From positions 1-64,000 of the forward strand of contig CALVFO010000051.1 of NCBI GenBank assembly GCA_944326855.1: a stretch of DNA of 64,000 bases, given 5' to 3'. Source of the DNA: an uncultured Alistipes sp. GTDB lineage: Bacteria > Bacteroidota > Bacteroidia > Bacteroidales > Rikenellaceae. Shown here in pieces: positions 22,913 to 33,351 of the stretch (the stretch's first letter is position 1; every line of letters begins with the position of its first letter). Position numbers and translations under genes: made by a program. The notes beneath the pieces are model-generated. The model was not told the origin of the DNA. It saw only the letters and a program-made list of their open reading frames with translations, and made no database searches.

Positions 22913-22957
22913 TCGAGGCTACCTCTTGACAAAGGGGTAGCCTCGATCGTATATTTG
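22913..22957 (+). promoter_or_regulatory. Promoter with overlapping 11-bp palindrome at the island's start
   Basis: TCGAGGCTACC (22913-22923) and GGTAGCCTCGA (22936-22946) form a perfect 11-bp inverted repeat with a 12-base centre. The centre holds TTG (22926-22928), and 21 bases downstream is TATATTTG (22950-22957), so the palindrome covers the -33 and spacer of a Bacteroidetes-type promoter. Without a T-run after it, an operator is more likely than a terminator for rnhB. The predicted leader to the first island gene is about 185 nt. Confidence 0.6.
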
Positions 22958-23054
22958 TCCCGGAAACGAACTCCCGTTTCTCCTTTTCGGATCCCTTTCC
23001 CGGAATCCCGATCCTTCTCCAATCAATTCCATCGTCCGCTTCTCTTCCCCGAAC

Positions 23055-23486
23055 TTATCAACAATTCGGAGAAACGATGTCCCCTCCCTTTATCAACACA
23101 ACACGCGGATCGGAAATCCCTCGACTAACACCTCAAATTCCTGTCAATTATGATAGAAAATACGTCTTCATCTTCCCCCAAACGCCGAGGAAGACCTCGG
23201 AAATCCCCCCTGACCGAAACGGTTCCTCAGCCTGGAACCCAACCTCAAAGCATTGAAAATCTAACTAAAACATGCATCGAAACCCTGCAAATCGCTTTAC
23301 AACAAACCAAAGCCCTCGCACGAGAACGCCTTCGCCAAAAACGATCCGATACCCGAATACGTAACGTCGGACGGGAAATCCAAGAACTGCTCAAAGTCAT
23401 GACCCGATATTGTCAAAATTAAATTATCAACAGCTATCCACACGACCGATGCCTTTATCAACACATGAAATCCATCATTATCAACA
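23055..23486 (+). repeat. Cluster of five TTATCAACA boxes (DnaA-box-like)
   Basis: Exact TTATCAACA occurs at 23055-23063, 23090-23098, 23424-23432, 23455-23463 and 23478-23486, all in the same orientation. CTATCCACA lies at 23434-23442. The classical DnaA box is TTATNCACA, so the repeat differs at one position. The boxes bracket the first island gene and run into the second. They could be a replication origin or protein-binding sites controlling the operon. Confidence 0.65.
23150..23422 (+). CDS. Small basic protein with AT-hook-like motif
   Basis: 90 residues, first gene of the capsid-tail island. The N terminus carries KRRGRPRKSP (about 11-20), an AT-hook-type GRP core flanked by basic residues, suggesting minor-groove DNA binding. 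Residues about 40-88 are predicted helical and rich in Arg, Lys and Gln. It could be a regulator of the island, a DNA-packaging accessory or a small-terminase-like protein; I recognise no family. Flanked on both sides by TTATCAACA boxes. Confidence 0.6.
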   Translation: MIENTSSSSPKRRGRPRKSPLTETVPQPGTQPQSIENLTKTCIETLQIALQQTKALARERLRQKRSDTRIRNVGREIQELLKVMTRYCQN

Positions 23487-24298
23487 ACCGGAACTTCTCG
23501 TATGCCGACAAACTGGATGAGCTATCCCTGGGCGAATGGCAAACCCTAATGCTCCTGAAACACAACCCCGACCTCCTATCTCCATCCGCCCCGGAAACAA
23601 ACTTCGAAATCCCAAAACTGAGAAACTCCCTCAACCTCAAATCCAATATTCTTCGAAAAACCGACCCGAACGACCGAAACCTCTTGCTAAAACACTGGAG
23701 CCATCTCATCGCCCAACAAAGTATCGAAAGACTCAATCACCCGCCATCCCCCCAACAGCCCCAACTTAACCCTGAAAATACTTCCCTCTTCCAGAAACAA
23801 ACCCTCCGAAATGCCCGTAACCGCTCCTTCCCCAATCGCCCGTTGGAAAAACTCTCCGCTCAAGCCTTCTGTGACGCTACGGACCTCTTCCTGGAAAACC
23901 CCGTAACACACGCCCATCTCATTAGCTGCATCCTGAGCCAACCCCAAAATTCGACATACAACGAAACCACCATCCTTCGACAGGCGCAGAAACTAAAACG
24001 ACACGCCCTCAAATACACCCTCGAACGATTCGATGAACTATGGAATGCCCATCGTGTGCTGAGAACCTACTTCCCGGCATGCTATCGAAAACCGCTTCAT
24101 GAATCCCTGCCCGCCCAAACAGACAACTCAACCCCCTCCCGATGGAACGATATCCTGCTGTGGGTGGCCAACTACCTCCCTTCCGAAATCCCCCATATCG
24201 CACAAACCCCCTGCTATGAATTCATGCGCATGGCCGACAGTAAAATCCGCATGCATAAAAACACCTTCTCCGTCCAAAACCCGATGAATCATGTTTAG
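23465..24298 (+). CDS. Tail-assembly-chaperone-like island protein
   Basis: 277 residues. The opening (ADKLDELSLGEWQTLMLLK) and the C-terminal part (WNDILLWVANYL ... YEFMRMADSKIRMH) resemble tail assembly chaperones of Bacteroidetes tailed phages, which coat the tape measure during assembly. The middle (about 60-110) is a variable Pro/Gln/Asn-rich linker. In phages this gene normally sits directly before the tape measure gene; here the next gene is only 141 codons and overlaps it by 8 bp. The assignment is by pattern only. Confidence 0.5.
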   Translation: MKSIIINNRNFSYADKLDELSLGEWQTLMLLKHNPDLLSPSAPETNFEIPKLRNSLNLKSNILRKTDPNDRNLLLKHWSHLIAQQSIERLNHPPSPQQPQLNPENTSLFQKQTLRNARNRSFPNRPLEKLSAQAFCDATDLFLENPVTHAHLISCILSQPQNSTYNETTILRQAQKLKRHALKYTLERFDELWNAHRVLRTYFPACYRKPLHESLPAQTDNSTPSRWNDILLWVANYLPSEIPHIAQTPCYEFMRMADSKIRMHKNTFSVQNPMNHV

Positions 24299-24716
24299 AA
24301 CCCGATTACGTTCCTTCATCCAACAAGAGGCCGAAAAGTCCGGCTACCATTTCCGAAACGGGTTTCTGTATCGTATCACCCGAAATGACCTGACATTCCC
24401 CGCCCTGTGGATGGAACCCCCCTCCCTGACGGATGCCATAGGACGACACGAAGGGAGGATCACCTATCATGTAACGCTGCACCTGATCACCTCCGGAAAA
24501 AATTATGACGAAGCCGAAAAAGAAGCACAGTGGGAAAACCTGGAAAAACAAGCCTTGACTTGGACCCAAAACCTCCTTGCCCATGACGATATCTTCTCGG
24601 TCGACAAAATCCGTTGCTCTCCCGCCGAATTCAGCCTGACAAACCGCGGAGAAATCTCCCTGAAAATCGAGTTCGATACCCATTTCATTTTCCCCCTCAA
24701 AACCTCCGAACCCTAA
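24291..24716 (+). CDS. Tail-terminator or neck-like small island protein
   Basis: 141 residues, alpha/beta pattern. Sequence features (hydrophobic strand ITYHVTLHLI, central helix KEAQWENLEKQALTWTQNLL, then two C-terminal strands ending LKIEFDTHF) fit the fold of tail terminator or tail completion proteins that cap the tail tube at the head end. No confident family match by eye. It overlaps the preceding gene and is followed after 30 bp by the next. Confidence 0.45.
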   Translation: MFRTRLRSFIQQEAEKSGYHFRNGFLYRITRNDLTFPALWMEPPSLTDAIGRHEGRITYHVTLHLITSGKNYDEAEKEAQWENLEKQALTWTQNLLAHDDIFSVDKIRCSPAEFSLTNRGEISLKIEFDTHFIFPLKTSEP

Positions 24717-24746
24717 CCCGACTCAGGCCTTAATCCTCAAAACTCT

Positions 24747-25751
24747 ATGGAAATCATCGCTACCCCCGCTCAACGTTCCTCCGCCTATCGGGACGCCATC
24801 TTCTCACTCTCCGCCCTCGAATCCGAACAAATCGACCTGGATATTCGAGATGAAACGCAAAACCTGTTGCTGGGGAAAAAAAGACTCTCCGGACAAACAT
24901 CCTACTCCGTCAACGTCAGTAATTACGCCCAACGTCTCCTGAATGTCACCCCCCTGAGAAACAATACGTCGTTCTTCTCCCATCCCGAACACAGAATGGC
25001 CTCCATCCAAATTCAGGCCGGCAACACCCAAGGAAGCGTCATCCTGACCAGCGGACTGGAAAAAATCATGTTCTTCGAAAAACTGTCCAAAGCCCCCGAC
25101 CCGCAACCAATCTCCCCCGAACACGGAGACGAACTCGCCCTCTATACCGACGACTCGGCCCTTTTTGCAGACATCATCCTGAACATCAACGGCCAACAAC
25201 AAAAAATCCGAATCGCCGAAAAAGAGAAGAAAATGGGACTCTGTGCACTGTACCTCAGCATGCCCCACGTCGCAAACAAAATCAGCGACGCCGGATTAGG
25301 TCTCCTCGAAAACTATCACGACCTGGAACTGCAAATCACAACCGAATACAACGAATTGGTCCTCAGCCGAAAATACACCCTCGAGGCAGCCTCCCCTAAA
25401 ACACTGAGACTCTGCTGGTGGAACTATTTCGGACAAATCGACTACTACAGCTTCAAATTGAACCGAAAATCCCTCCTCATCGACAAACAACGAATCTATT
25501 CCCAACAAGGATACAAAACAACCGGCTGCCAAACCGAAACCCTATACGAACTGATCTCCAATTGCCTGAACGAAGAAAATATGAACTGGCTGCAAGAACT
25601 GACCGCAGCCCCGAAAGTATGGATCGACGACGGAATCAACTTTATCCCCGTGGAAATCCTGACCCAACAAATCATCACCGGAGGAAACGAACTCGTAAAA
25701 ATGGAAATCAGTATGACCCCCTGTCAGAAAACCATATACCAGCACCTCTAA
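24747..25751 (+). CDS. Probable distal tail or tail-tip protein
   Basis: 334 residues, beta-rich, with no signal peptide or membrane segment. It precedes, by 4 bp, the 801-residue tail-hub-like gene, the usual pairing of a distal tail protein with a hub in tailed phages of Bacteroidetes. Conspicuous segments are LLLGKKRLSGQTSYSVNVS near the N terminus and LCWWNYFGQIDYYSF at about 215-230. Function is inferred from position and general composition. Confidence 0.5.
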   Translation: MEIIATPAQRSSAYRDAIFSLSALESEQIDLDIRDETQNLLLGKKRLSGQTSYSVNVSNYAQRLLNVTPLRNNTSFFSHPEHRMASIQIQAGNTQGSVILTSGLEKIMFFEKLSKAPDPQPISPEHGDELALYTDDSALFADIILNINGQQQKIRIAEKEKKMGLCALYLSMPHVANKISDAGLGLLENYHDLELQITTEYNELVLSRKYTLEAASPKTLRLCWWNYFGQIDYYSFKLNRKSLLIDKQRIYSQQGYKTTGCQTETLYELISNCLNEENMNWLQELTAAPKVWIDDGINFIPVEILTQQIITGGNELVKMEISMTPCQKTIYQHL

Positions 25752-25755
25752 ACCC

Positions 25756-28161
25756 ATGAAATGCTTTATCGATAACCGAGAAGCGGAAACCGATCCCGCC
25801 CAAAGCCTCGCCATCACCCTCTCCATCGCCTCGGTCTCGCAAATCGAAACCGGTCGAACCGGATACAGCAAAAACCTGAAACTCCCCATTACACTGCATA
25901 ACCGGGAAATCCTGAACGACGCCGGCGAAATCCTCTCTCCTCAACGGTTCAATCAAACTCCCCATACCGCCCGTATCGAAAAAGACGGATGTATCGTGAT
26001 GGAAGGAATCCCCATGATGACCAAACGGGAAGAATTCCCGGACAGATCGGGTTGGTACCACCTGTGTATCATCGGAGCCGGGAAAGAATGGATACAAACC
26101 GCTTCCGAACGCATGTTCAATGAACTGGATATCGATTTCGAATCCGTACTCAATGCCAATACCGTGCTCAACAGCTGGTCCGGAGAACAAATCGTGCGAT
26201 TTTTCCCCGTACAGCGAGACCGATTCTCCCTCCCAACCCAAACGCTCCAAAGCGGTGTCCGAATGATGACCTTCGAGGATTATCATCCTTTCCTGCATGT
26301 CCATTCCTTGATCCGGCAAATAGCCGCCCAAAGCGGATATACCATTCAATCTTCATTCCTGGAAAGCCCCCTCTTCGATGCCCTGTACATCAGCGGGAAA
26401 TATCCGGAACGAGACAGCACCCTGCTGAAAGAACGAATGGGGTTTCTGGCCGGACGATTCTCTTCGATATCGGCCACGGCAGATCACCTGGGTCGGATCT
26501 ATGCCGATCCGCTCAGCTCGATCGCCTCCCTGGGAAACCTGGTCGAAACAGCCGACCCTCATGAACAACAAAACGGAGTAAGCCTCCCGGATCTCTATAA
26601 CCACAACGAATGCTTCCGAAAAGAGGGCGATCGATTCGGGTTCTTCCCCGTAGAAAGCGTCGTGGCCGGTTTCGAATACGATATCCAGTATCAAAGCGAT
26701 TATATCATCAGCAACCGCCAGGAACTCTGCTGTTTCAATACCCTGTATCTGGACGACGGCCATGAACGGGAATACAAAGTCATGAATCGGAATACAGATC
26801 GCCGCCATGAATTCCGGGCCAACTGGAACTATACGCTCATCGTATTCGACCACCTCGACGGAAACTCCTATCAGTTCACCTATGACAAAATTACCAACCC
26901 GAATGCGGATCTCCAGAACCTGCAACCCTCAGATTATGTCACCCTGGTCCTGAAATCCTTTTCCGAACGATGCGTCAATATCTCAACCCCCACCGGTGAA
27001 ACCATCCTGAACCCTCAACTCCAGATACGATTCCCCGACAATACCTATCAACCCTATACCCAAGACTGGGCTCTATATGACGGATATGTCACTGAAACCG
27101 GACAAATCGACATCCGTATCACCGCACGAAGTACCGCCCGGGAAATCAAACCGTCTCAACCCCAATATTTCGATCAAATCTACTTCGGAGGAGCCCGAGA
27201 AGGCATGAAACTCACGCTCTCTGCTAAAACGACCCTGAAACCGATCTTCGTATCCCACCCGGGAGAGGGCAATAGCGTCAATTTCGCTCAGGTCGCAGCT
27301 CACGAAATCCGGCAAATCGAACTGATCAATGCCCTCAAACAAATGTTCAACCTCTACTTCTATACGGATACCCGAACCAAAACCATATACATCGAGCCGA
27401 GGGAAGAGTTTTATGGATCCCAACTTATCGACTGGAGCGATAAAATCGACCTGGAAAAACCCATTCAGGTCGAAGAACTGGGCGAAGAAACCGGAAACCT
27501 GTTTACCCTCCAATACCAAACCGGAGATGGAGCCGTTACCCGATGGAATCGAGCCAACAAACAAGTTCTGGGGGCCTGGAGTGCCGAAATTCAAAACCGA
27601 TTCACCCAACAAAAAGAAAAAACGTACGAAAACCCGCTCTTTACCGCCTCGATCAATCAGCAGAACGTCTATCCCGACGCGCCGTCCGCTTCCATCGTCC
27701 AAGCCGGAGATCGCGACGCAGACGGCGAAAATCCCGGGGTGGAAAATCTGAACTTCATGCCCAAAATCGTATGTTATGCCGGTGTGAAAACGCTCCCCGA
27801 AGGGGAATATTGGGGCTGGCCGGCCTACGGCAACCAATATCCGATGATCGCATTCCATGATCCGGACGGAAATACCCCCTCTCTCTGCTTCGAGGACCGA
27901 AACAACCAACAAGGACTGCACCGGTATTATGACAAAACAATCGAAACATACAACCAAGGCCTGAAAATCACCCTGTATCTCCACCTGACCCCCGACGAAA
28001 TCGAACCGTTCATCATCCCGAATGACATGCAACACGATTTTCGCGCCCGGTTCAAACTCCGAATCCACGGAGAAGAGATCATCTGCCGACTGGAAGAAAT
28101 TACCGACTACAACCCCGATCTCAACCAATCAACACGTTGCACCTTTCTGAAAACCGCCTAA
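25756..28161 (+). CDS. Large tail-hub-like protein
   Basis: 801 residues, the largest gene of the island. The N terminus contains ITLSIASVSQIETGRTGYSK followed by NLKLPITLHNREIL. That pattern (conflict with a resting state, 'SK', then 'LP.T..N') I associate with a tail/baseplate-hub family in Bacteroidetes prophages. The remainder is beta-rich with many Tyr/Asp/Gly turns. No catalytic motif, collagen repeat or receptor-binding repeat is evident, so host-binding fibres are absent or elsewhere. Confidence 0.55.
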   Translation: MKCFIDNREAETDPAQSLAITLSIASVSQIETGRTGYSKNLKLPITLHNREILNDAGEILSPQRFNQTPHTARIEKDGCIVMEGIPMMTKREEFPDRSGWYHLCIIGAGKEWIQTASERMFNELDIDFESVLNANTVLNSWSGEQIVRFFPVQRDRFSLPTQTLQSGVRMMTFEDYHPFLHVHSLIRQIAAQSGYTIQSSFLESPLFDALYISGKYPERDSTLLKERMGFLAGRFSSISATADHLGRIYADPLSSIASLGNLVETADPHEQQNGVSLPDLYNHNECFRKEGDRFGFFPVESVVAGFEYDIQYQSDYIISNRQELCCFNTLYLDDGHEREYKVMNRNTDRRHEFRANWNYTLIVFDHLDGNSYQFTYDKITNPNADLQNLQPSDYVTLVLKSFSERCVNISTPTGETILNPQLQIRFPDNTYQPYTQDWALYDGYVTETGQIDIRITARSTAREIKPSQPQYFDQIYFGGAREGMKLTLSAKTTLKPIFVSHPGEGNSVNFAQVAAHEIRQIELINALKQMFNLYFYTDTRTKTIYIEPREEFYGSQLIDWSDKIDLEKPIQVEELGEETGNLFTLQYQTGDGAVTRWNRANKQVLGAWSAEIQNRFTQQKEKTYENPLFTASINQQNVYPDAPSASIVQAGDRDADGENPGVENLNFMPKIVCYAGVKTLPEGEYWGWPAYGNQYPMIAFHDPDGNTPSLCFEDRNNQQGLHRYYDKTIETYNQGLKITLYLHLTPDEIEPFIIPNDMQHDFRARFKLRIHGEEIICRLEEITDYNPDLNQSTRCTFLKTA

Positions 28162-28173
28162 CCGCTCAAAGCT

Positions 28174-28647
28174 ATGTCTATCTTATACCGCATTCGATTC
28201 GACTCCCTCCTTCCCCTCGATCTAGATACACCCACTTCACGCTCTTCGCCTTCCTCTCCCGACATAAGCGCCAACCCTCCGGACAACAGCGCGACCGCCA
28301 TCTCCCCGCTCAGCGTCCTATCCGCTTCAGAAGACAAGCCCCAAAATACCTTCTCCATCACCTCCTCTCCCCTGTCCTTCGAGTCTCACCGCTCTATCGC
28401 AGACCTACAGCCGCTCTCTTTGTCCGGATCCCTCATCGACAAACAAACCTCGTCCCCATCTGCCTCGTCAAACCCGCCGACCACCCCTTCCTCAGCTTCT
28501 CCCAACGATTCGGCTCCCCTCGTCCGCGCTGAAGTACGTCAAATGATCGACGAAGCCCTGAACGGTCTGAAAGTCTATGTCCTGGAATCCGATATCACCC
28601 AAGCCCAACAAGCTGTCAAAAGCATCGTCGAACTAGCATCCTTCTAA
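28174..28647 (+). CDS. Ser/Pro-rich island protein, possible reduced tape-measure-region protein
   Basis: 157 residues. Residues about 15-115 are low-complexity Ser, Pro, Ala and Thr, predicted disordered. The last 45 residues form a helix and end VYVLESDITQAQQAVKSIVE-LASF. This resembles C-terminal ends I associate with structural proteins near the tape measure and tail tip in Bacteroidetes phages. The gene begins 12 bp after the hub-like gene and ends one base before the next. An overlapping open frame (28137-28532) lacks this conserved end and is rejected. Confidence 0.5.
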   Translation: MSILYRIRFDSLLPLDLDTPTSRSSPSSPDISANPPDNSATAISPLSVLSASEDKPQNTFSITSSPLSFESHRSIADLQPLSLSGSLIDKQTSSPSASSNPPTTPSSASPNDSAPLVRAEVRQMIDEALNGLKVYVLESDITQAQQAVKSIVELASF

Positions 28648-28648
28648 C

Positions 28649-28921
28649 ATGACTTCTTACGAGAAAGAACTCATCTCTCAATTGGAACAGCACTATCCCA
28701 GGCTGTCGACAACCCGATTGCTGGAAAAACTAATGGATATGGGTGTCATCGATTTCTCCCGTTGCAAAATCTTGGCCGTACGAAGTCGGGTCGAACAACT
28801 CGTCAAACAAGGATATAAAAAAATCGATGCCATGTGGGAAGCCGCCTCCCATTTCGCCTGTTCCTACGAATATGTGCGTAAATGCATGTACTACTACCAA
28901 GACGTAAACCTTTGTGATTAA
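28649..28921 (+). CDS. Small helix-turn-helix-like island protein
   Basis: 90 all-helical residues. The C-terminal half (KIDAMWEAASHFACSYEYVR then KCMYYY) has the spacing of a helix-turn-helix in which ACSY is the turn. It sits between tail-type and head-type genes, where a regulator or small-terminase-like DNA-binding protein might be expected. No family assigned. It is spaced 1 bp from the preceding gene, so it is translated as part of the operon. Confidence 0.5.
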   Translation: MTSYEKELISQLEQHYPRLSTTRLLEKLMDMGVIDFSRCKILAVRSRVEQLVKQGYKKIDAMWEAASHFACSYEYVRKCMYYYQDVNLCD

Positions 28922-28948
28922 CCTTTAAGCATCCTTATCGTCCACGCT

Positions 28949-29959
28949 ATGTTAACCGGAACCCTCGTATTGGTGAAACGTTCGGAACAAATCACCGAAC
29001 TGAACATCGACGGCATGATCGGCCTTTCGGAGGAAAACCCCTCCGAAACTCCGATAGACAGCCGGGAAAGTTATGCCGCCTTCCAAAAACAACTCGAAGC
29101 CATTCGACAAATTACGACCCCAGAAATCGTGGTCAATATCCGCTCCGCCGGAGGAAACGTCAATGACGCCCTGTTGATCCATGACATCCTGTGCGAATCG
29201 GGAAAACTAATCACCACCCGTTGCTACGGCTATGTCGCCTCGGCCGCCACCCTAATCGCCCAAGCCGCCTCAAAAGGACGTCGAGAAATGTCGGCTAACA
29301 GCCTGTATCTGATCCACCGTTCCACCTGCAGCGGAAGCGGAAATGTGGATACACTCTCCCAAACCGTCGACCTGCTCAACCAAACCGACCGACGAATCGC
29401 TGAACTGTATGCCGCCCGGGCAGGAAAAACCACCGACCATTTTCTACAGTTAATGGCCATGAACCACGGAAACGGGAAATGGTTGTGCGCCCGAGAAGCC
29501 AAAACGGCCGGATTGATCGACCGAATTATTCCGGCTCAGAAAATCAACGACGAAATCCCTTATTCCCTGCCAAACAGCCAACTCCCGGCTCTGCCCGAAC
29601 CCGCCTGTAAACTATCAGAAGTATGGATGGAAGCCGCCTTACGGCTTTTACAAAAAACCGTTGAAAAACTATCTGAAAAATGCAGAAACACCCTCAACCC
29701 TTCCCAACCTCCCTCAGAGAACAGCGCTCCGGCACGCTCTGCGGAGCCTCAAACCATCCCCAACAACACAACTAACGAACAGCCAGATCCGGTAGCCCCC
29801 TCTCCAAACACTCCCAAACGACCGCCTATCGACCCGCCCCTCCGCATGCAGGCCCGGGCCACCTCAACCGAAAAACAAGAAGACCCCGGATACGAAGAAC
29901 CGCTGGCATCCCCCAATGCCCGATCCTACCAACAAGACGCCGAACAATTCACCCTATAA
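28949..29959 (+). CDS. ClpP-type capsid maturation protease with proline-rich tail
   Basis: 336 residues. Residues about 15-200 are a serine peptidase of the S14 ClpP fold: NIRSAGGNV (oxyanion loop, about 63-71), catalytic S98 in GYVASAATLIAQAA, H123 in LYLIHRST, and the family-typical REAKTAGLIDRII ending. Residues 200-336 are a Pro/Ser/Asn-rich tail, as in phage proteases where it acts as a scaffold and is cleaved. The next gene is the capsid protein, 22 bp on, which fixes the role as head maturation rather than housekeeping ClpP. Probable catalytic residues are intact. Confidence 0.85.
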   Translation: MLTGTLVLVKRSEQITELNIDGMIGLSEENPSETPIDSRESYAAFQKQLEAIRQITTPEIVVNIRSAGGNVNDALLIHDILCESGKLITTRCYGYVASAATLIAQAASKGRREMSANSLYLIHRSTCSGSGNVDTLSQTVDLLNQTDRRIAELYAARAGKTTDHFLQLMAMNHGNGKWLCAREAKTAGLIDRIIPAQKINDEIPYSLPNSQLPALPEPACKLSEVWMEAALRLLQKTVEKLSEKCRNTLNPSQPPSENSAPARSAEPQTIPNNTTNEQPDPVAPSPNTPKRPPIDPPLRMQARATSTEKQEDPGYEEPLASPNARSYQQDAEQFTL

Positions 29960-29981
29960 CCCCTTATTCAAATTTATCATT

Positions 29982-30986
29982 ATGGCAAAAATCGAAAGTA
30001 CCAAAACCTACTCCGGACAGACCCTGGAAAACATCTTCTTCCGACCCATGCTCAGCGGCCCAAATGCCATCGACCTGGGCATCAAAGTCATGTACAACAT
30101 GCCGATGCCTACAACCCTGCAATTCTGGAAACGAGCCGGAGACATCCTGCAAAAACTGACGGCCGGAGGCTGGAATGGGTCCACCAGCACGTCCAAATTC
30201 CAAAAAACCATCGCGCTCTCAAAAGTCAAAGCCGAAATCAGCTACGGAGCCGCCGACTATTTCAGTATGGTATTCGAACTGATCACCAACCGACCGGATG
30301 TCAATATGGATGACCTCTCGGGAACCGAACTCGAAGCGGCTGAAACCGCCCTCTTCCGGGAAGCCATCGCTGAAAGTATTCGGGTAACAATGTGGCTGGG
30401 CGATACGGACCGCAGCGGAAGCTACAATACATTCGACGGTTTCATCAAACGCATGACCGAAGATGTTGGAAGTACCACAAACGATATCCGTAAAATCGAT
30501 ATCCCCGCCAGCTTCTCCGACGGAAGCGACCCCGAAGCCGGTGAAAACCTGCTCAAAAGCCTGTGGGATAACGCCACTACAGCCCTGAAAGCCTGCAAAT
30601 CCCAAGGAAACCTGGTCTACCTGGTCACCTCGGATATTTACGCAAAATACGAAGAAGAACTCGATAGCGCCAGCCTCGAAGCAGCCTACCTCGCCAAACA
30701 AAACGGCCGAGAAAGACTCTCGTATCGCGGTATTCCCGTCATTGATGTAGAACTCTCCTCCTACCTGAGCGCACTCTCCGACATGCCCAAATCCTTCGCC
30801 GTACTGACCGACCGCCGAAATCTGGCTCTGGCCGTCAATACCGCCGACTTCCCCGGATCGGAAATCCGAATGTGGTATAACCCCGACCTGATGGAAAACC
30901 GGCAACGGGCCGTCTTTATGGCCGGATGCGATTACCTGCTCCCCGAACTGATCTCGTTGGCTATACCGGCTACCTCTGAACCCTAA
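29982..30986 (+). CDS. HK97-fold major capsid protein
   Basis: 334 residues. The segment RGIPVIDVELSSYL, then FAVLTDRRNLALAVNT, MWYNPDLMENRQRAVFMAG and DYLLPELISLAI matches the C-terminal part of HK97-like capsid proteins of Bacteroidetes phages. The N terminus is short, consistent with a separate scaffold (the protease tail). The ATG at 29982 is preferred over an upstream in-frame start at 29916, which would overlap the protease gene. A perfect 14-bp hairpin follows, typical of a highly expressed capsid transcript end. Confidence 0.82.
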   Translation: MAKIESTKTYSGQTLENIFFRPMLSGPNAIDLGIKVMYNMPMPTTLQFWKRAGDILQKLTAGGWNGSTSTSKFQKTIALSKVKAEISYGAADYFSMVFELITNRPDVNMDDLSGTELEAAETALFREAIAESIRVTMWLGDTDRSGSYNTFDGFIKRMTEDVGSTTNDIRKIDIPASFSDGSDPEAGENLLKSLWDNATTALKACKSQGNLVYLVTSDIYAKYEEELDSASLEAAYLAKQNGRERLSYRGIPVIDVELSSYLSALSDMPKSFAVLTDRRNLALAVNTADFPGSEIRMWYNPDLMENRQRAVFMAGCDYLLPELISLAIPATSEP

Positions 30987-31001
30987 AATCATACCTCTCC
31001 C

Positions 31002-31034
31002 AATCCGGGTTTTGTCGAATACAAAACCCGGATT
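31002..31034 (+). terminator. Hairpin after the capsid gene (attenuator or mRNA stabiliser)
   Basis: AATCCGGGTTTTGT (31002-31015) pairs perfectly with ACAAAACCCGGATT (31021-31034) around a 5-base loop. No T-run follows, so it may partly stop transcription or protect the capsid mRNA 3' end, raising capsid yield relative to downstream genes. Confidence 0.7.
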
Positions 31035-31077
31035 CTCCTATCAATTACGTTTAACGCTTCCTTAAAACAAGTACAAC

Positions 31078-31611
31078 ATGGCATTATCCGGATACGCCCC
31101 CTTATACAACACCCGCAGAAACGGCGGAATTCAAAAACTCGCCCTGATCCAAACCAGCGATCTGGTGGAAACCCAGTATGACGCCGAATCCCGGGGATAC
31201 ACGAATATCACCCTCCAGTTAAGCCAAAAATTTTCGGTGTACAACTTCCGAGAAGATGAGGCGGAATACACCGAAAAAACAGAAATCCAACAAGGTGTCG
31301 TCGTCGTAACTCATGAGCTGAAATTTCTGCTCGACAAAATGTGCAACACAACAGCCATCGCCGTTTCCGAACTGATCAACAGCTCCTTCAGAGGACTCAT
31401 CGCCCTGATCAGAACGTTTACGAACGAAACTTACCTGATCGGATACTCCCAAGAATTCGAAAAACAACGCCCGCTGCATGTCGTACAAACCAATGCTACA
31501 ACCGGAAAGCGATTTACCGATCCCAGTTCGGAAATCATCGTCCTCCAAAGTACCGACACCGCTAAAGCCTGCAACGTATTCATGGACATCGACGAACTGC
31601 TGAACAACTAA
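31078..31611 (+). CDS. Tail-tube-like protein
   Basis: 177 residues. The pattern NGGIQKLALI, a central strand region, then TNETYLIGYSQEFEKQRPLH and TGKRFTDPSSEIIVLQS resembles tail tube proteins of Bacteroidetes siphophages (a '.. G..YLLG...G..+....TG....D..' motif before a final strand). It lies between the capsid and portal genes, an unusual place for a tube gene. An alternative is a head decoration or neck protein. Confidence 0.55.
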   Translation: MALSGYAPLYNTRRNGGIQKLALIQTSDLVETQYDAESRGYTNITLQLSQKFSVYNFREDEAEYTEKTEIQQGVVVVTHELKFLLDKMCNTTAIAVSELINSSFRGLIALIRTFTNETYLIGYSQEFEKQRPLHVVQTNATTGKRFTDPSSEIIVLQSTDTAKACNVFMDIDELLNN

Positions 31612-31622
31612 TCTTCTCCCCC

Positions 31623-32861
31623 ATGCATAAACCTCCCCTTCCTAACAAAATCCCCAACAAACTCTATCTGCCAACGAACCGGACAGATCCCTTTTTCCCC
31701 ACTCATTCCTCCCTCCCAAGCAGTAAACAACCCTTCTGGAAATGGGGAAACGACAACCTGTTCCCATACGCTCTGGCCCTGATGTCCCGCCATTCGACAA
31801 CCCATCGGCGAATTATCAACGACAAAGCCGACTATATCTCCGGAAAAGGATTCTCTTTCGATCCGGAAAACCAAATGCTGGAAGCATTTACACGCCGGGC
31901 CAACGGTTCCGGAGAAAGCCTCCGACAAGTCTTCAACAAACTGGCTTTCGACAAAGCCCTCTTCGGAAACGCCTTCCTGGAAATCGTCTCCGATCCCCAG
32001 CACTCGTTTCTCTCCCTTTTCCATCAAGACGCCTCCAAATGCCGGGTCGCCAAAGAAAATAACGCCATCCTGCTTCACCACAACTGGAAAGAATTCAAGC
32101 ACGATACGTGCCGGTCTCTTCCGCTTTACCCTCGGTTCGAATTGAGCGATGACGGAACCCTGCGCTCCATCATCCACTACAAAGATTATGAACCCATGTT
32201 CGAACACTATGGCGTACCGTCTTACATCGCCGGAATGAACGTGTCGGCCATCGCCTACAAAACCGATCAATGGAATATCAGCCGACTGGACAACTCGTTC
32301 CAATTATCCGGCATTATGGTGCTGGACGGAGAAGTCGACAACGAACTGGACGCCCACCAGATTATCCGAACCGCCGAAAAACGATTCGCCGGAAAACCCG
32401 GGCAAGTCATGTTCATGATCAAAAATACGGAAGAAGCCGACAACTCGAAATTCGTCCCCATCGCGTCGGATAACGAAGGGGACTGGAAACTCCTACATGA
32501 ACAGGCAACCTCGGATATCGTAGTCGCTCACTCCTGGTTCCGATCGCTGAGTGGATTGGATTATGCCAGCGGTTTCAACTCGGAACGCATCCTCCACGAA
32601 TACGAAATCGCCCTCAACACCCTCATTCTGGGAGAACAGCAAGAACTCTTGGAACCCATTCGCGATGCGATTGCCAACCTCTTGGGCTGTGATGCCTCCT
32701 CCCTGCAAGTCATCAACCGACCGCCTACCCGATCCAAACCGCTTTACATGAAAGTCTGGGAAGCCCGTAAAAACGACGGATTGGATTACGACCCGACCGA
32801 TCCTCAACAAAACCTGTTCCTGGCTCAGATCACCAAATACGCCCTGAAAAATATCGATTGA
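31623..32861 (+). CDS. Phage portal protein
   Basis: 412 residues. The N-terminal motif FWKWGNDNLFPYALALM followed by HRRIINDKADYISGKGF is characteristic of portal proteins from Bacteroidetes tailed phages. The portal is the dodecameric ring at one capsid vertex through which DNA passes and to which the tail attaches. Its presence implies that a portal vertex, not a plain shell, is built. The next gene starts one base after this stop. Length is near the usual 400-480. Confidence 0.85.
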   Translation: MHKPPLPNKIPNKLYLPTNRTDPFFPTHSSLPSSKQPFWKWGNDNLFPYALALMSRHSTTHRRIINDKADYISGKGFSFDPENQMLEAFTRRANGSGESLRQVFNKLAFDKALFGNAFLEIVSDPQHSFLSLFHQDASKCRVAKENNAILLHHNWKEFKHDTCRSLPLYPRFELSDDGTLRSIIHYKDYEPMFEHYGVPSYIAGMNVSAIAYKTDQWNISRLDNSFQLSGIMVLDGEVDNELDAHQIIRTAEKRFAGKPGQVMFMIKNTEEADNSKFVPIASDNEGDWKLLHEQATSDIVVAHSWFRSLSGLDYASGFNSERILHEYEIALNTLILGEQQELLEPIRDAIANLLGCDASSLQVINRPPTRSKPLYMKVWEARKNDGLDYDPTDPQQNLFLAQITKYALKNID

Positions 32862-32862
32862 C

Positions 32863-33351
32863 ATGAGCGCCCTTTTACTCGCCACTCCCGCAGAAATCTG
32901 GGAAATCGCCTTTCCGCAAAGCGGAAATACCCCTGACGAAAATATCAACGAAACCTTGATCGAAACCGCTCAGATACGCTATCTCAAACCGGTTTTGGGC
33001 CCTCTGTACGACAGTTTGGATGAAGCCCGGTATCAGGATTTCATCGGACGGTTTCTCAAAAAGCCTTTGGCTTATTATGTACGAAGTCTCTCTCTGGGTC
33101 TGATGAGCGCTTCCGTCGGAAGTTTAGGTATTCTGGAAGGAAAAACCGATTATGCTTCACCGGTTTCCATTCGCCAACTTCATGCCTTACGCAAAGAAGC
33201 CCGGCACCAGGCCGACATTTTGTTGGATCTGGCCGTGGAATACATCGAAAACAATCCCTCGCAATTCCCCGAATACGTCCCACAAAAAAACATCCGGCAC
33301 TACACCCGTATTCGAGGCGGTATCGTCATGAATACCCCTCCTAAACCCTGA
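32863..33351 (+). CDS. Head-tail adaptor-like protein (DUF6712-like)
   Basis: 162 residues, mostly helical, with ETAQIRYLKPVLGPLYDSL near the N terminus and a C-terminal FPEYVPQKNIRHYTRIRGGIVMN. This arrangement is typical of small adaptor/DUF6712-like proteins encoded after the portal in Bacteroidetes phages, comparable to HK97 gp6. It is the last gene of the island. No plus-strand poly-T terminator follows; the hairpin at 33383-33413 has its T-run on the minus strand. Confidence 0.7.
   Translation: MSALLLATPAEIWEIAFPQSGNTPDENINETLIETAQIRYLKPVLGPLYDSLDEARYQDFIGRFLKKPLAYYVRSLSLGLMSASVGSLGILEGKTDYASPVSIRQLHALRKEARHQADILLDLAVEYIENNPSQFPEYVPQKNIRHYTRIRGGIVMNTPPKP

What the first reader, a model, noticed from the sequence alone, without database searches (positions are those of the whole stretch)
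22913..33351. Capsid-plus-tail operon without terminase, integrase, lysis or tape measure: possible domesticated particle or gene transfer agent
Seen: twelve intact plus-strand genes include a ClpP-type maturation protease with its Ser and His, an HK97-fold capsid protein, a portal, an adaptor, a tube-like protein and tail-tip-like proteins. Terminase, tape measure, integrase, lysis and replication genes are missing, no attachment repeats were noticed, and composition matches the host. Known: gene transfer agents keep structural genes in a compact operon and scatter others; decayed prophages normally show broken frames. Inference: selection keeps a particle that may carry host DNA or a non-DNA cargo.
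Basis: partly seen in the sequence, partly recalled or inferred. Interest (0 to 1): 0.88.

Follow-up and report, generated by a model that had tools for sequence, protein, structure and literature searches.

The report
Gene transfer agent in gut Rikenellaceae
Gut bacteria of the family that includes Alistipes carry an old, carefully preserved set of virus-particle genes, with the DNA-packing motor kept elsewhere in the chromosome, which suggests that they make virus-like particles to move their own DNA between cells.

Summary
The island is real: 12 open plus-strand genes at 23150-33351, with a maturation protease, capsid, portal and DUF6712 protein. Named relatives are Rikenellaceae, mostly Alistipes. 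The portal is in 74 of 91 family genomes searched, with gene order largely kept. Portal, capsid and terminase distances follow gyrB (17 genomes); dN/dS of the 12 genes is 0.075-0.45. Fifteen related phage or prophage portals fall outside the family clade.

The "missing" terminase exists. An intact large terminase lies on another contig behind a small-subunit gene and a divergent CI-type HTH/S24 repressor. It is in 78 of 91 family genomes and 0 of 59 others; 73 have both it and the portal. In six genomes of two genera it sits 2-3 kb from the portal, the likely ancestral state. A promoter upstream of the island recurs in 59 of 80 relatives and matches once in this genome. Holin and endolysin end the cluster in 59 and 49 of 80 relatives; neither was found in this genome. 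The cluster has no room for a tape measure.

Best reading: an ancient, vertically inherited gene transfer agent. Packaging and transfer are inferred, not shown.

The parts
22926..22957 (+). Cluster promoter TTGACA-N18-TATATTTG (Bacteroidota-type -7 box, recalled, with a conserved TTGACA element)
   Evidence: Same element upstream of the cluster in 59 of 80 related loci, spacing 17-19; only match in the whole own genome, reversed control 0
22958..23149 (+). Untranslated leader with repeated GTTATC(A/G)ACA-type motif (window copies at 23057 and 23092, further ones at 23426, 23457, 23480)
   Evidence: Leaders of 59 loci hold about 10.5 motifs per kb against 0.65 in the rest of the loci; strand-specific
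23150..23422 (+). g1, 90 aa, unknown
   Evidence: ORF; no Pfam or PHROG match; dN/dS 0.29 against L033
23465..24298 (+). g2, 277 aa, unknown
   Evidence: ORF; no family; dN/dS 0.45
24291..24716 (+). g3, 141 aa, unknown
   Evidence: same position in relatives where detected; dN/dS 0.35
24747..25751 (+). g4, 334 aa, possible tail or neck protein (by position)
   Evidence: same position in relatives where detected; dN/dS 0.33
25756..28161 (+). g5, 801 aa, likely tail or adsorption-apparatus protein
   Evidence: found in 77 of 93 loci L031-L123; local match to the protein next to the tape measure in L122; dN/dS 0.14
28174..28647 (+). g6, 157 aa, variable N-terminus and conserved C-terminus; sits where L122 has a 1015-aa tape measure
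   Evidence: C-terminal motif in the window and 10 fetched loci; no family; dN/dS 0.37
28649..28921 (+). g7, 90 aa, small conserved protein before the protease
   Evidence: dN/dS 0.107; homolog at the same place in L122
28949..29959 (+). g8, 336 aa, ClpP-type head maturation protease
   Evidence: phrog_94 1.9e-36, PF00574 2.6e-24; dN/dS 0.27
29916..30986 (+). g9, major capsid protein; start probably 29982
   Evidence: phrog_1623 7.3e-10; alignment A4; dN/dS 0.075
31078..31611 (+). g10, 177 aa, connector or tube candidate
   Evidence: homologs directly after the capsid gene in L118-L123; dN/dS 0.108; function not resolved
31623..32861 (+). g11, 412 aa, portal protein
   Evidence: phrog_11226 3.9e-19, PF04860 8e-8, under its cut-off, TIGR01540 2.7e-15, under its cut-off; dN/dS 0.084
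32863..33351 (+). g12, 162 aa, DUF6712 protein in the adaptor position
   Evidence: PF20459 3.4e-11; dN/dS 0.126

Best explanation
The island is the structural locus of a two-locus gene transfer agent (GTA) that was domesticated once, before the sampled Rikenellaceae genera split, and has been inherited vertically since. Shown by sequence: a head-portal cluster behind one conserved promoter; a second locus elsewhere (own genome contig C31) with a CI-type HTH plus S24-peptidase repressor facing away from a small gene, a terminase small subunit and an intact large terminase; co-occurrence and host-like phylogeny of both loci; purifying selection; holin and endolysin genes at the end of the cluster in most relatives. 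Inferred: when the repressor is relieved (S24 repressors usually respond to RecA/SOS, recalled), terminase is made; the structural operon is expressed from its own promoter; proheads mature through the ClpP-type protease; the terminase fills them with chromosomal fragments through the portal; particles leave by lysis and deliver DNA to relatives through a short or absent tail. No integrase or replication family is seen among the island genes and the loci are usually far apart, so the particle is unlikely to carry its own full gene set.
For: Portal in 74 of 91 family genomes; outside the family one weak match in 59 and 10 matches, 4 of them weak, among 392 order genomes of which 6 more are of the family. 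Terminase profile: 78 of 91 family and 0 of 59 other genomes; both in 73, terminase only 5, portal only 1, neither 12, Fisher 2.4e-10, genomes treated as independent. Own terminase: phrog_38 4e-83, PF03237 and TIGR01630 above cut-off, conserved ATPase and nuclease residues (roles recalled). Repressor within 3 kb of the terminase in 60 of 78; CI/S24 type; small subunit phrog_309 1.4e-7 in G002. Terminase 2-3 kb from the portal in six genomes of g8 and g13. Mantel r with gyrB over 17 genomes: portal 0.81, terminase 0.79, capsid 0.73, 0 of 2000 permutations each. Family portals one clade against 15 phage or prophage rows, 100/99. dN/dS 0.075-0.45 for the 12 genes. Promoter in 59 of 80 loci, once in own genome. 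Holin 59/80, endolysin 49/80.
Against: No particle, packaged DNA or transfer has been shown. No PF05105 holin or P5-type endolysin was found in this genome, 93% complete, so release here is unexplained. No tape measure is in the cluster (gap g5 to ClpP at most 832 nt in 66 relatives), and none was sought genome-wide. The repressor's palindrome is absent from the island promoter, so how the two loci are coordinated is unknown. The repressor type is not specific: 5 of 59 other-family genomes match it too, and in 18 of 78 terminase genomes it is not near the terminase. PMC12946183 names 23 of its 25 GTA-like events in faecal particles, all in Gram-positive families; Rikenellaceae was abundant in total faecal DNA but is not named among them. 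Genomes lacking both loci are often incomplete, which inflates co-occurrence. All sampled members of genera g9 (2) and g11 (4) lack both, so the system is dispensable. The promoter pattern misses the cluster in 3 of 14 cluster-bearing genomes checked whole.
Confidence: 0.72

Rival explanations
1. An ordinary prophage or decaying remnant whose other half lies elsewhere after rearrangement.
For: Related phages and prophages exist: L118 ends in a phage integrase gene (PF13102, PF00589), and some other order genomes hold 2-4 portal copies.
Against: Usually one copy across a family, host-congruent trees, all 12 frames open with dN/dS below 0.5, no flanking repeat among those listed, separate conserved terminase locus.
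Confidence: 0.07
2. A domesticated particle with another job: a killing particle, interference with incoming phages, or a non-DNA compartment.
For: No tape measure in the cluster and no confirmed tail; lysis genes not found in this genome.
Against: Tailocins keep tails and drop heads (recalled); here capsid, portal and terminase are kept. Invariant ATPase and nuclease residues of the terminase make most sense if DNA is packed or cut.
Confidence: 0.14
3. A phage satellite of the capsid-forming type (cf-PICI) that borrows tails from helper phages.
For: Own capsid, portal and terminase with few tail genes is the cf-PICI pattern (recalled).
Against: No integrase or replication family recognised among the island genes, vertical inheritance, loci split apart in most genomes.
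Confidence: 0.05

Closest known systems
Brachyspira GTA (BhGTA/VSH-1, Brachygtaviriformidae)
   Same: Structural cluster co-diversified with the host genus; single-copy conserved terL located outside the cluster (PMC9662315, passages seen)
   Different: Different phylum; sequence homology was not tested; here the terminase locus has its own CI/S24 repressor and the system spans a family
Faecalibacterium FpGTA
   Same: Gut anaerobe, a 10.5 kb head operon plus a distant second operon, particle without identifiable tail (PMC12946183, section 9 read)
   Different: There the terminase is in the head operon and baseplate/lysis genes in the second; here head genes are in one locus and terminase plus repressor in the other; Bacteroidota host
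Rhodobacter GTA (RcGTA, Rhodogtaviriformidae)
   Same: Vertical inheritance, scattered loci (five in R. capsulatus), phage-derived head genes (PMC9662315, passages)
   Different: RcGTA keeps DNA packaging in its 17-gene head-tail cluster (PMC7947584, passages) and has a tape measure (recalled); sequences were not compared here
Phage-like IMG/VR contigs L118 and L122
   Same: Same order protease-capsid-g10-portal; adaptor next in both (by inspection in L122); L122 also has homologs of g5 and g7; L118 has a PF05105 holin and L122 a holin-like match
   Different: L122 has a 1015-aa tape measure (phrog_3336) and a terminase with no BLAST similarity to the family's; L118 has an integrase; both lie outside the family clade

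Membership tests
Gene transfer agent | Derived from tailed-phage head/packaging genes | tested here: met
Gene transfer agent | Transmitted vertically, co-diversified with host | tested here: met
   Mantel r 0.73-0.81 with gyrB in 17 genomes, largely congruent trees; one family clade
Gene transfer agent | Genes scattered, no excision or replication genes with them | tested here: met
   Terminase on another contig in 51 of 73 genomes and 166 kb or more away in 4; no integrase or replication family among the island genes. A whole-genome integrase search was not run
Gene transfer agent | Maintained by selection | tested here: met
   dN/dS 0.075-0.45 for the 12 genes; promoter conserved in 59 of 80 loci. 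dN/dS of the terminase itself was not computed
Gene transfer agent | Dedicated lysis or release genes | tested here: inconclusive
   holin 59/80 and endolysin 49/80 loci; neither found in own genome
Gene transfer agent | Packages random host DNA and delivers it to recipients | not testable with these tools
   needs particles and sequencing
Rhodogtaviriformidae, Bartogtaviriformidae, Brachygtaviriformidae | Homology to the named GTA genes | not tested
   known GTA sequences were not compared
Prophage | Integrase and attachment repeats | tested here: not met
   no integrase family in the 12 proteins; no flank-to-flank repeat among those listed
Tailocin | Tail without head | tested here: not met
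   capsid, portal and terminase kept
Capsid-forming satellite (cf-PICI) | Mobile element with integrase and replication genes | tested here: not met
   none recognised in the island; vertical inheritance

The most novel reading that the evidence does not exclude
A gene transfer agent of independent origin, the first in Bacteroidota, present through most of Rikenellaceae: a head operon and an unlinked terminase operon under an SOS-type repressor, packing chromosomal DNA into short-tailed or tailless particles that move genes between Alistipes-group bacteria in animal guts.
Probability: 0.6. Interest if true: 0.92.

Novelty: new variant of a known kind. Interest (0 to 1): 0.86.

Why it matters
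A 2022 classification evaluated three independently arisen GTA groups with an established genetic basis (PMC9662315, abstract passage); Faecalibacterium was added in 2026 (PMC12946183). Eight paper searches listed no GTA of Rikenellaceae or Bacteroidota; several lists were capped and mostly titles and abstract starts were seen. A family-wide system in Alistipes, some of whose records here bear strain names, would give a route for gene exchange in a major gut phylum that virus catalogues misread as phage. It would also be a new case for the question why bacteria keep GTAs, with a clear two-locus layout and a repressor to remove.

Tried and rejected
A shared repressor operator in front of the structural cluster: exact palindromes near it in L044 and L064 turned out to lie inside the 3' end of rnhB, so this was dropped. 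g6 as a truncated tape measure: its conserved C-terminus recalls Bacteroidota tape measures from memory, but no phage match was found; not claimed. Competence linkage: comEC is near the cluster in 27 of 80 loci (plus strand in 25) and dprA in 2; one ancestral arrangement explains it. SPP1_portal in the own genome gave nothing; the portal belongs to other families. A ClpP query in IMG/VR found no relative. Profiles of capsid, g10 and portal against PDB gave no meaningful match. In one search short overlapping off-frame ORFs with dN/dS above 1 were also printed; I set them aside as wrong frames. Structure prediction could not be run.
Full report
What is there. Twelve consecutive plus-strand frames run from 23150 to 33351 between rnhB and a minus-strand gene. 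Four are recognised: a ClpP-type head maturation protease, a head protein, a portal and a DUF6712 protein in the adaptor position. The other eight have no informative family match in Pfam or PHROGs (the 90-aa g7 has weak sub-threshold hits); six of the eight were also tried in NCBIfam, without a match. No terminase, tape measure, integrase or lysis family was recognised in the island. Composition is close to the rest of the window, and no direct repeat among those listed joins the two flanks (the 20 largest of at least 60 families are shown).

Distribution. The portal protein was sought in 150 genomes around the window's own: 74 of the 91 same-family genomes have it, 56-87% identical in the full-length hits, usually one match; one of 59 genomes of other families has a weak match. 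Titles of relatives show the family is Rikenellaceae, mostly Alistipes (168 related stretches found, best 80 kept, so the counts over 80 loci below favour the closer ones). Among 392 order genomes, chosen for completeness, 16 match: 6 of the family and 10 outside, of which 4 are weak and three hold two to four copies, as prophages do. The order g3-g4-g5-g7-protease-capsid-g10-portal-g12 is kept in relatives wherever these genes are detected; small fast genes are often below detection. Flanks differ: rnhB lies upstream in 10 of 80 loci, CorA-like genes in 40 and MqnA-like genes in 30. Seven IMG/VR contigs (L111-L117) are this island filed as virus.

The missing terminase. A Pfam search for Terminase_6N found a match, mostly single, in 42 of 55 family genomes and in 1 of 36 others; this model also rings in 6 of 14 control genomes, so it is not specific. 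The own copy is on contig C31 and is a full large terminase: phrog_38 at 4e-83, TIGR01630 nuclease domain above its cut-off, with invariant ATPase and nuclease residues in 18 aligned sequences (residue roles recalled). A profile of these finds it in 78 of 91 family genomes and in none of 59 others. Portal and terminase are both present in 73, terminase alone in 5, portal alone in 1, neither in 12. Several genomes lacking one or both are incomplete, and genomes are not independent, so the Fisher value of 2.4e-10 is optimistic. The two g9 and four g11 genomes sampled lack both. The terminase lies within 3 kb of the portal in 6 genomes, all of genera g8 and g13, 8-72 kb away in 12, 166 kb to 2 Mb in 4, and on another contig in 51. 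In G020 (g13) the order is a divergent repressor, then small genes, terminase, g7-like gene, protease, capsid, portal, adaptor, without g3-g5 nearby. Genera g8 and g13 are the sister branch of the other sampled genera in the portal tree with phage rows (98/90), so I take the joined arrangement as ancestral.

A regulated second locus. Upstream of the terminase are a small-subunit gene (phrog_309, 1.4e-7 in G002), a conserved 93-aa unknown gene and, facing the other way, a CI-type repressor with HTH and S24 peptidase domains. A repressor match is within 3 kb of the terminase in 60 of 78 genomes. The repressor type is found in 77 of 91 family and 5 of 59 other genomes at E 1e-20, so the type alone is not specific. 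Between repressor and operon lies a palindrome TTCAA-N3-TTGAA overlapping divergent promoter-like boxes; by eye it is exact in 7 of the 12 sequences printed. TTCAAWWWTTGAA occurs once in the whole own genome, at this place. It is not in front of the structural cluster. That such repressors respond to SOS is recalled knowledge of the family, not shown here.

A dedicated promoter. In 59 of 80 loci the cluster is preceded by TTGACA-N17-19-TAnnTTTG. Of the 21 without it, two (L062, L068) have the upstream DNA; in the other 19 the contig ends within or near the start of the cluster (positions). With TATATTTG required, the own genome matches once, at 22926-22957; across 17 genomes there were 27 matches, 11 of them at the cluster (11 of the 14 cluster-bearing genomes), and 4 matches of the reversed control. 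The leaders carry a strand-specific GTTATC(A/G)ACA-like motif about 16 times denser than the rest of the loci. Its role is unknown.

Inheritance and selection. Over 17 genomes, distances for portal, terminase and capsid correlate with gyrB at 0.81, 0.79 and 0.73, none of 2000 permutations reaching these values. Portal and terminase trees agree with gyrB in the main groups; the window's two-species group moves in the terminase tree (support 80) and the two g13 rows do not group in the portal tree. In a tree with 15 phage or prophage portals the 17 family rows are one clade with support 100/99. Pairwise dN/dS against the closest relative (L033) is 0.084 for the portal, 0.075 for the capsid, 0.11-0.14 for g5, g7, g10 and g12, and 0.27-0.45 for the other six; rnhB is 0.082. 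In six further pairs of loci the portal is 0.010-0.074 and the capsid 0.038-0.267. Some of these pairs are close to synonymous saturation, off-frame ORFs printed there with values above 1 were set aside, and the terminase was not computed.

Lysis and tail. A holin-type gene is found in 59 of 80 loci and an endolysin-type gene in 49 of 80; representatives match PF05105 (L098) and phrog_873 (L036). In this genome neither a PF05105 holin nor that endolysin was found. Between g5 and the protease the gap is at most 832 nt in 66 relatives, while the phage-like contig L122 has a 1015-aa tape measure there. The particle is therefore likely short-tailed or tailless, or the tape measure is elsewhere. 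L122's terminase has no BLAST similarity to the family's, so the packaging gene and the head genes may have different phage histories; L118, the nearest phage-like contig, carries an integrase.

How it most likely works. Shown: the two loci, their conservation and their parts. Inferred: release of the repressor turns on the terminase; the structural operon fires from its own promoter; the protease matures proheads; the terminase packs chromosomal pieces because no mobile genome is left to pack; cells lyse and particles deliver DNA to relatives. This is the working scheme of a gene transfer agent.

Against known systems. In Brachyspira the single-copy terL also lies outside the GTA cluster (PMC9662315, passages). 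Faecalibacterium has two separated GTA operons and particles without identifiable tails (PMC12946183, section 9 read). That study names 23 of its 25 GTA-like events, all in Gram-positive families, and does not name Rikenellaceae among them although the family was abundant in total faecal DNA (passages): this speaks against strong constant production in those three donors. Eight searches of the open library listed no GTA of Rikenellaceae or Bacteroidota; several lists were capped (for example 20 of 74 and 15 of 87), only three papers were opened, and subscription papers and preprints were not covered.

Noticed in passing
L111-L117: Seven IMG/VR 'viral' contigs are this bacterial island (62-75% portal identity), so virus catalogues probably count it as phage.
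   Followed up: partly
window 22914-22944 and rnhB-junction relatives: The promoter's TTGACA sits in the loop of an inverted repeat whose stem sequence differs between species while still pairing by eye; it may double as the rnhB terminator.
   Followed up: no
window 23057, 23092, 23426, 23457, 23480: Strand-specific GTTATC(A/G)ACA-type repeats in the leader, strongly enriched in 59 relatives; possible activator or antitermination sites.
   Followed up: partly
L098 12537-14000 and 26 other loci: The competence gene comEC lies near the cluster in 27 of 80 loci, on the plus strand in 25; dprA is near in L098 and L083.
   Followed up: partly
L208 9040-9318: A conserved 93-aa family of unknown function between repressor and terminase small subunit.
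   Followed up: partly
L290 (MT838805.1): An unannotated 4.9-kb 'Bacteriophage sp.' contig from human faeces encodes the end of a 73% identical portal.
   Followed up: partly
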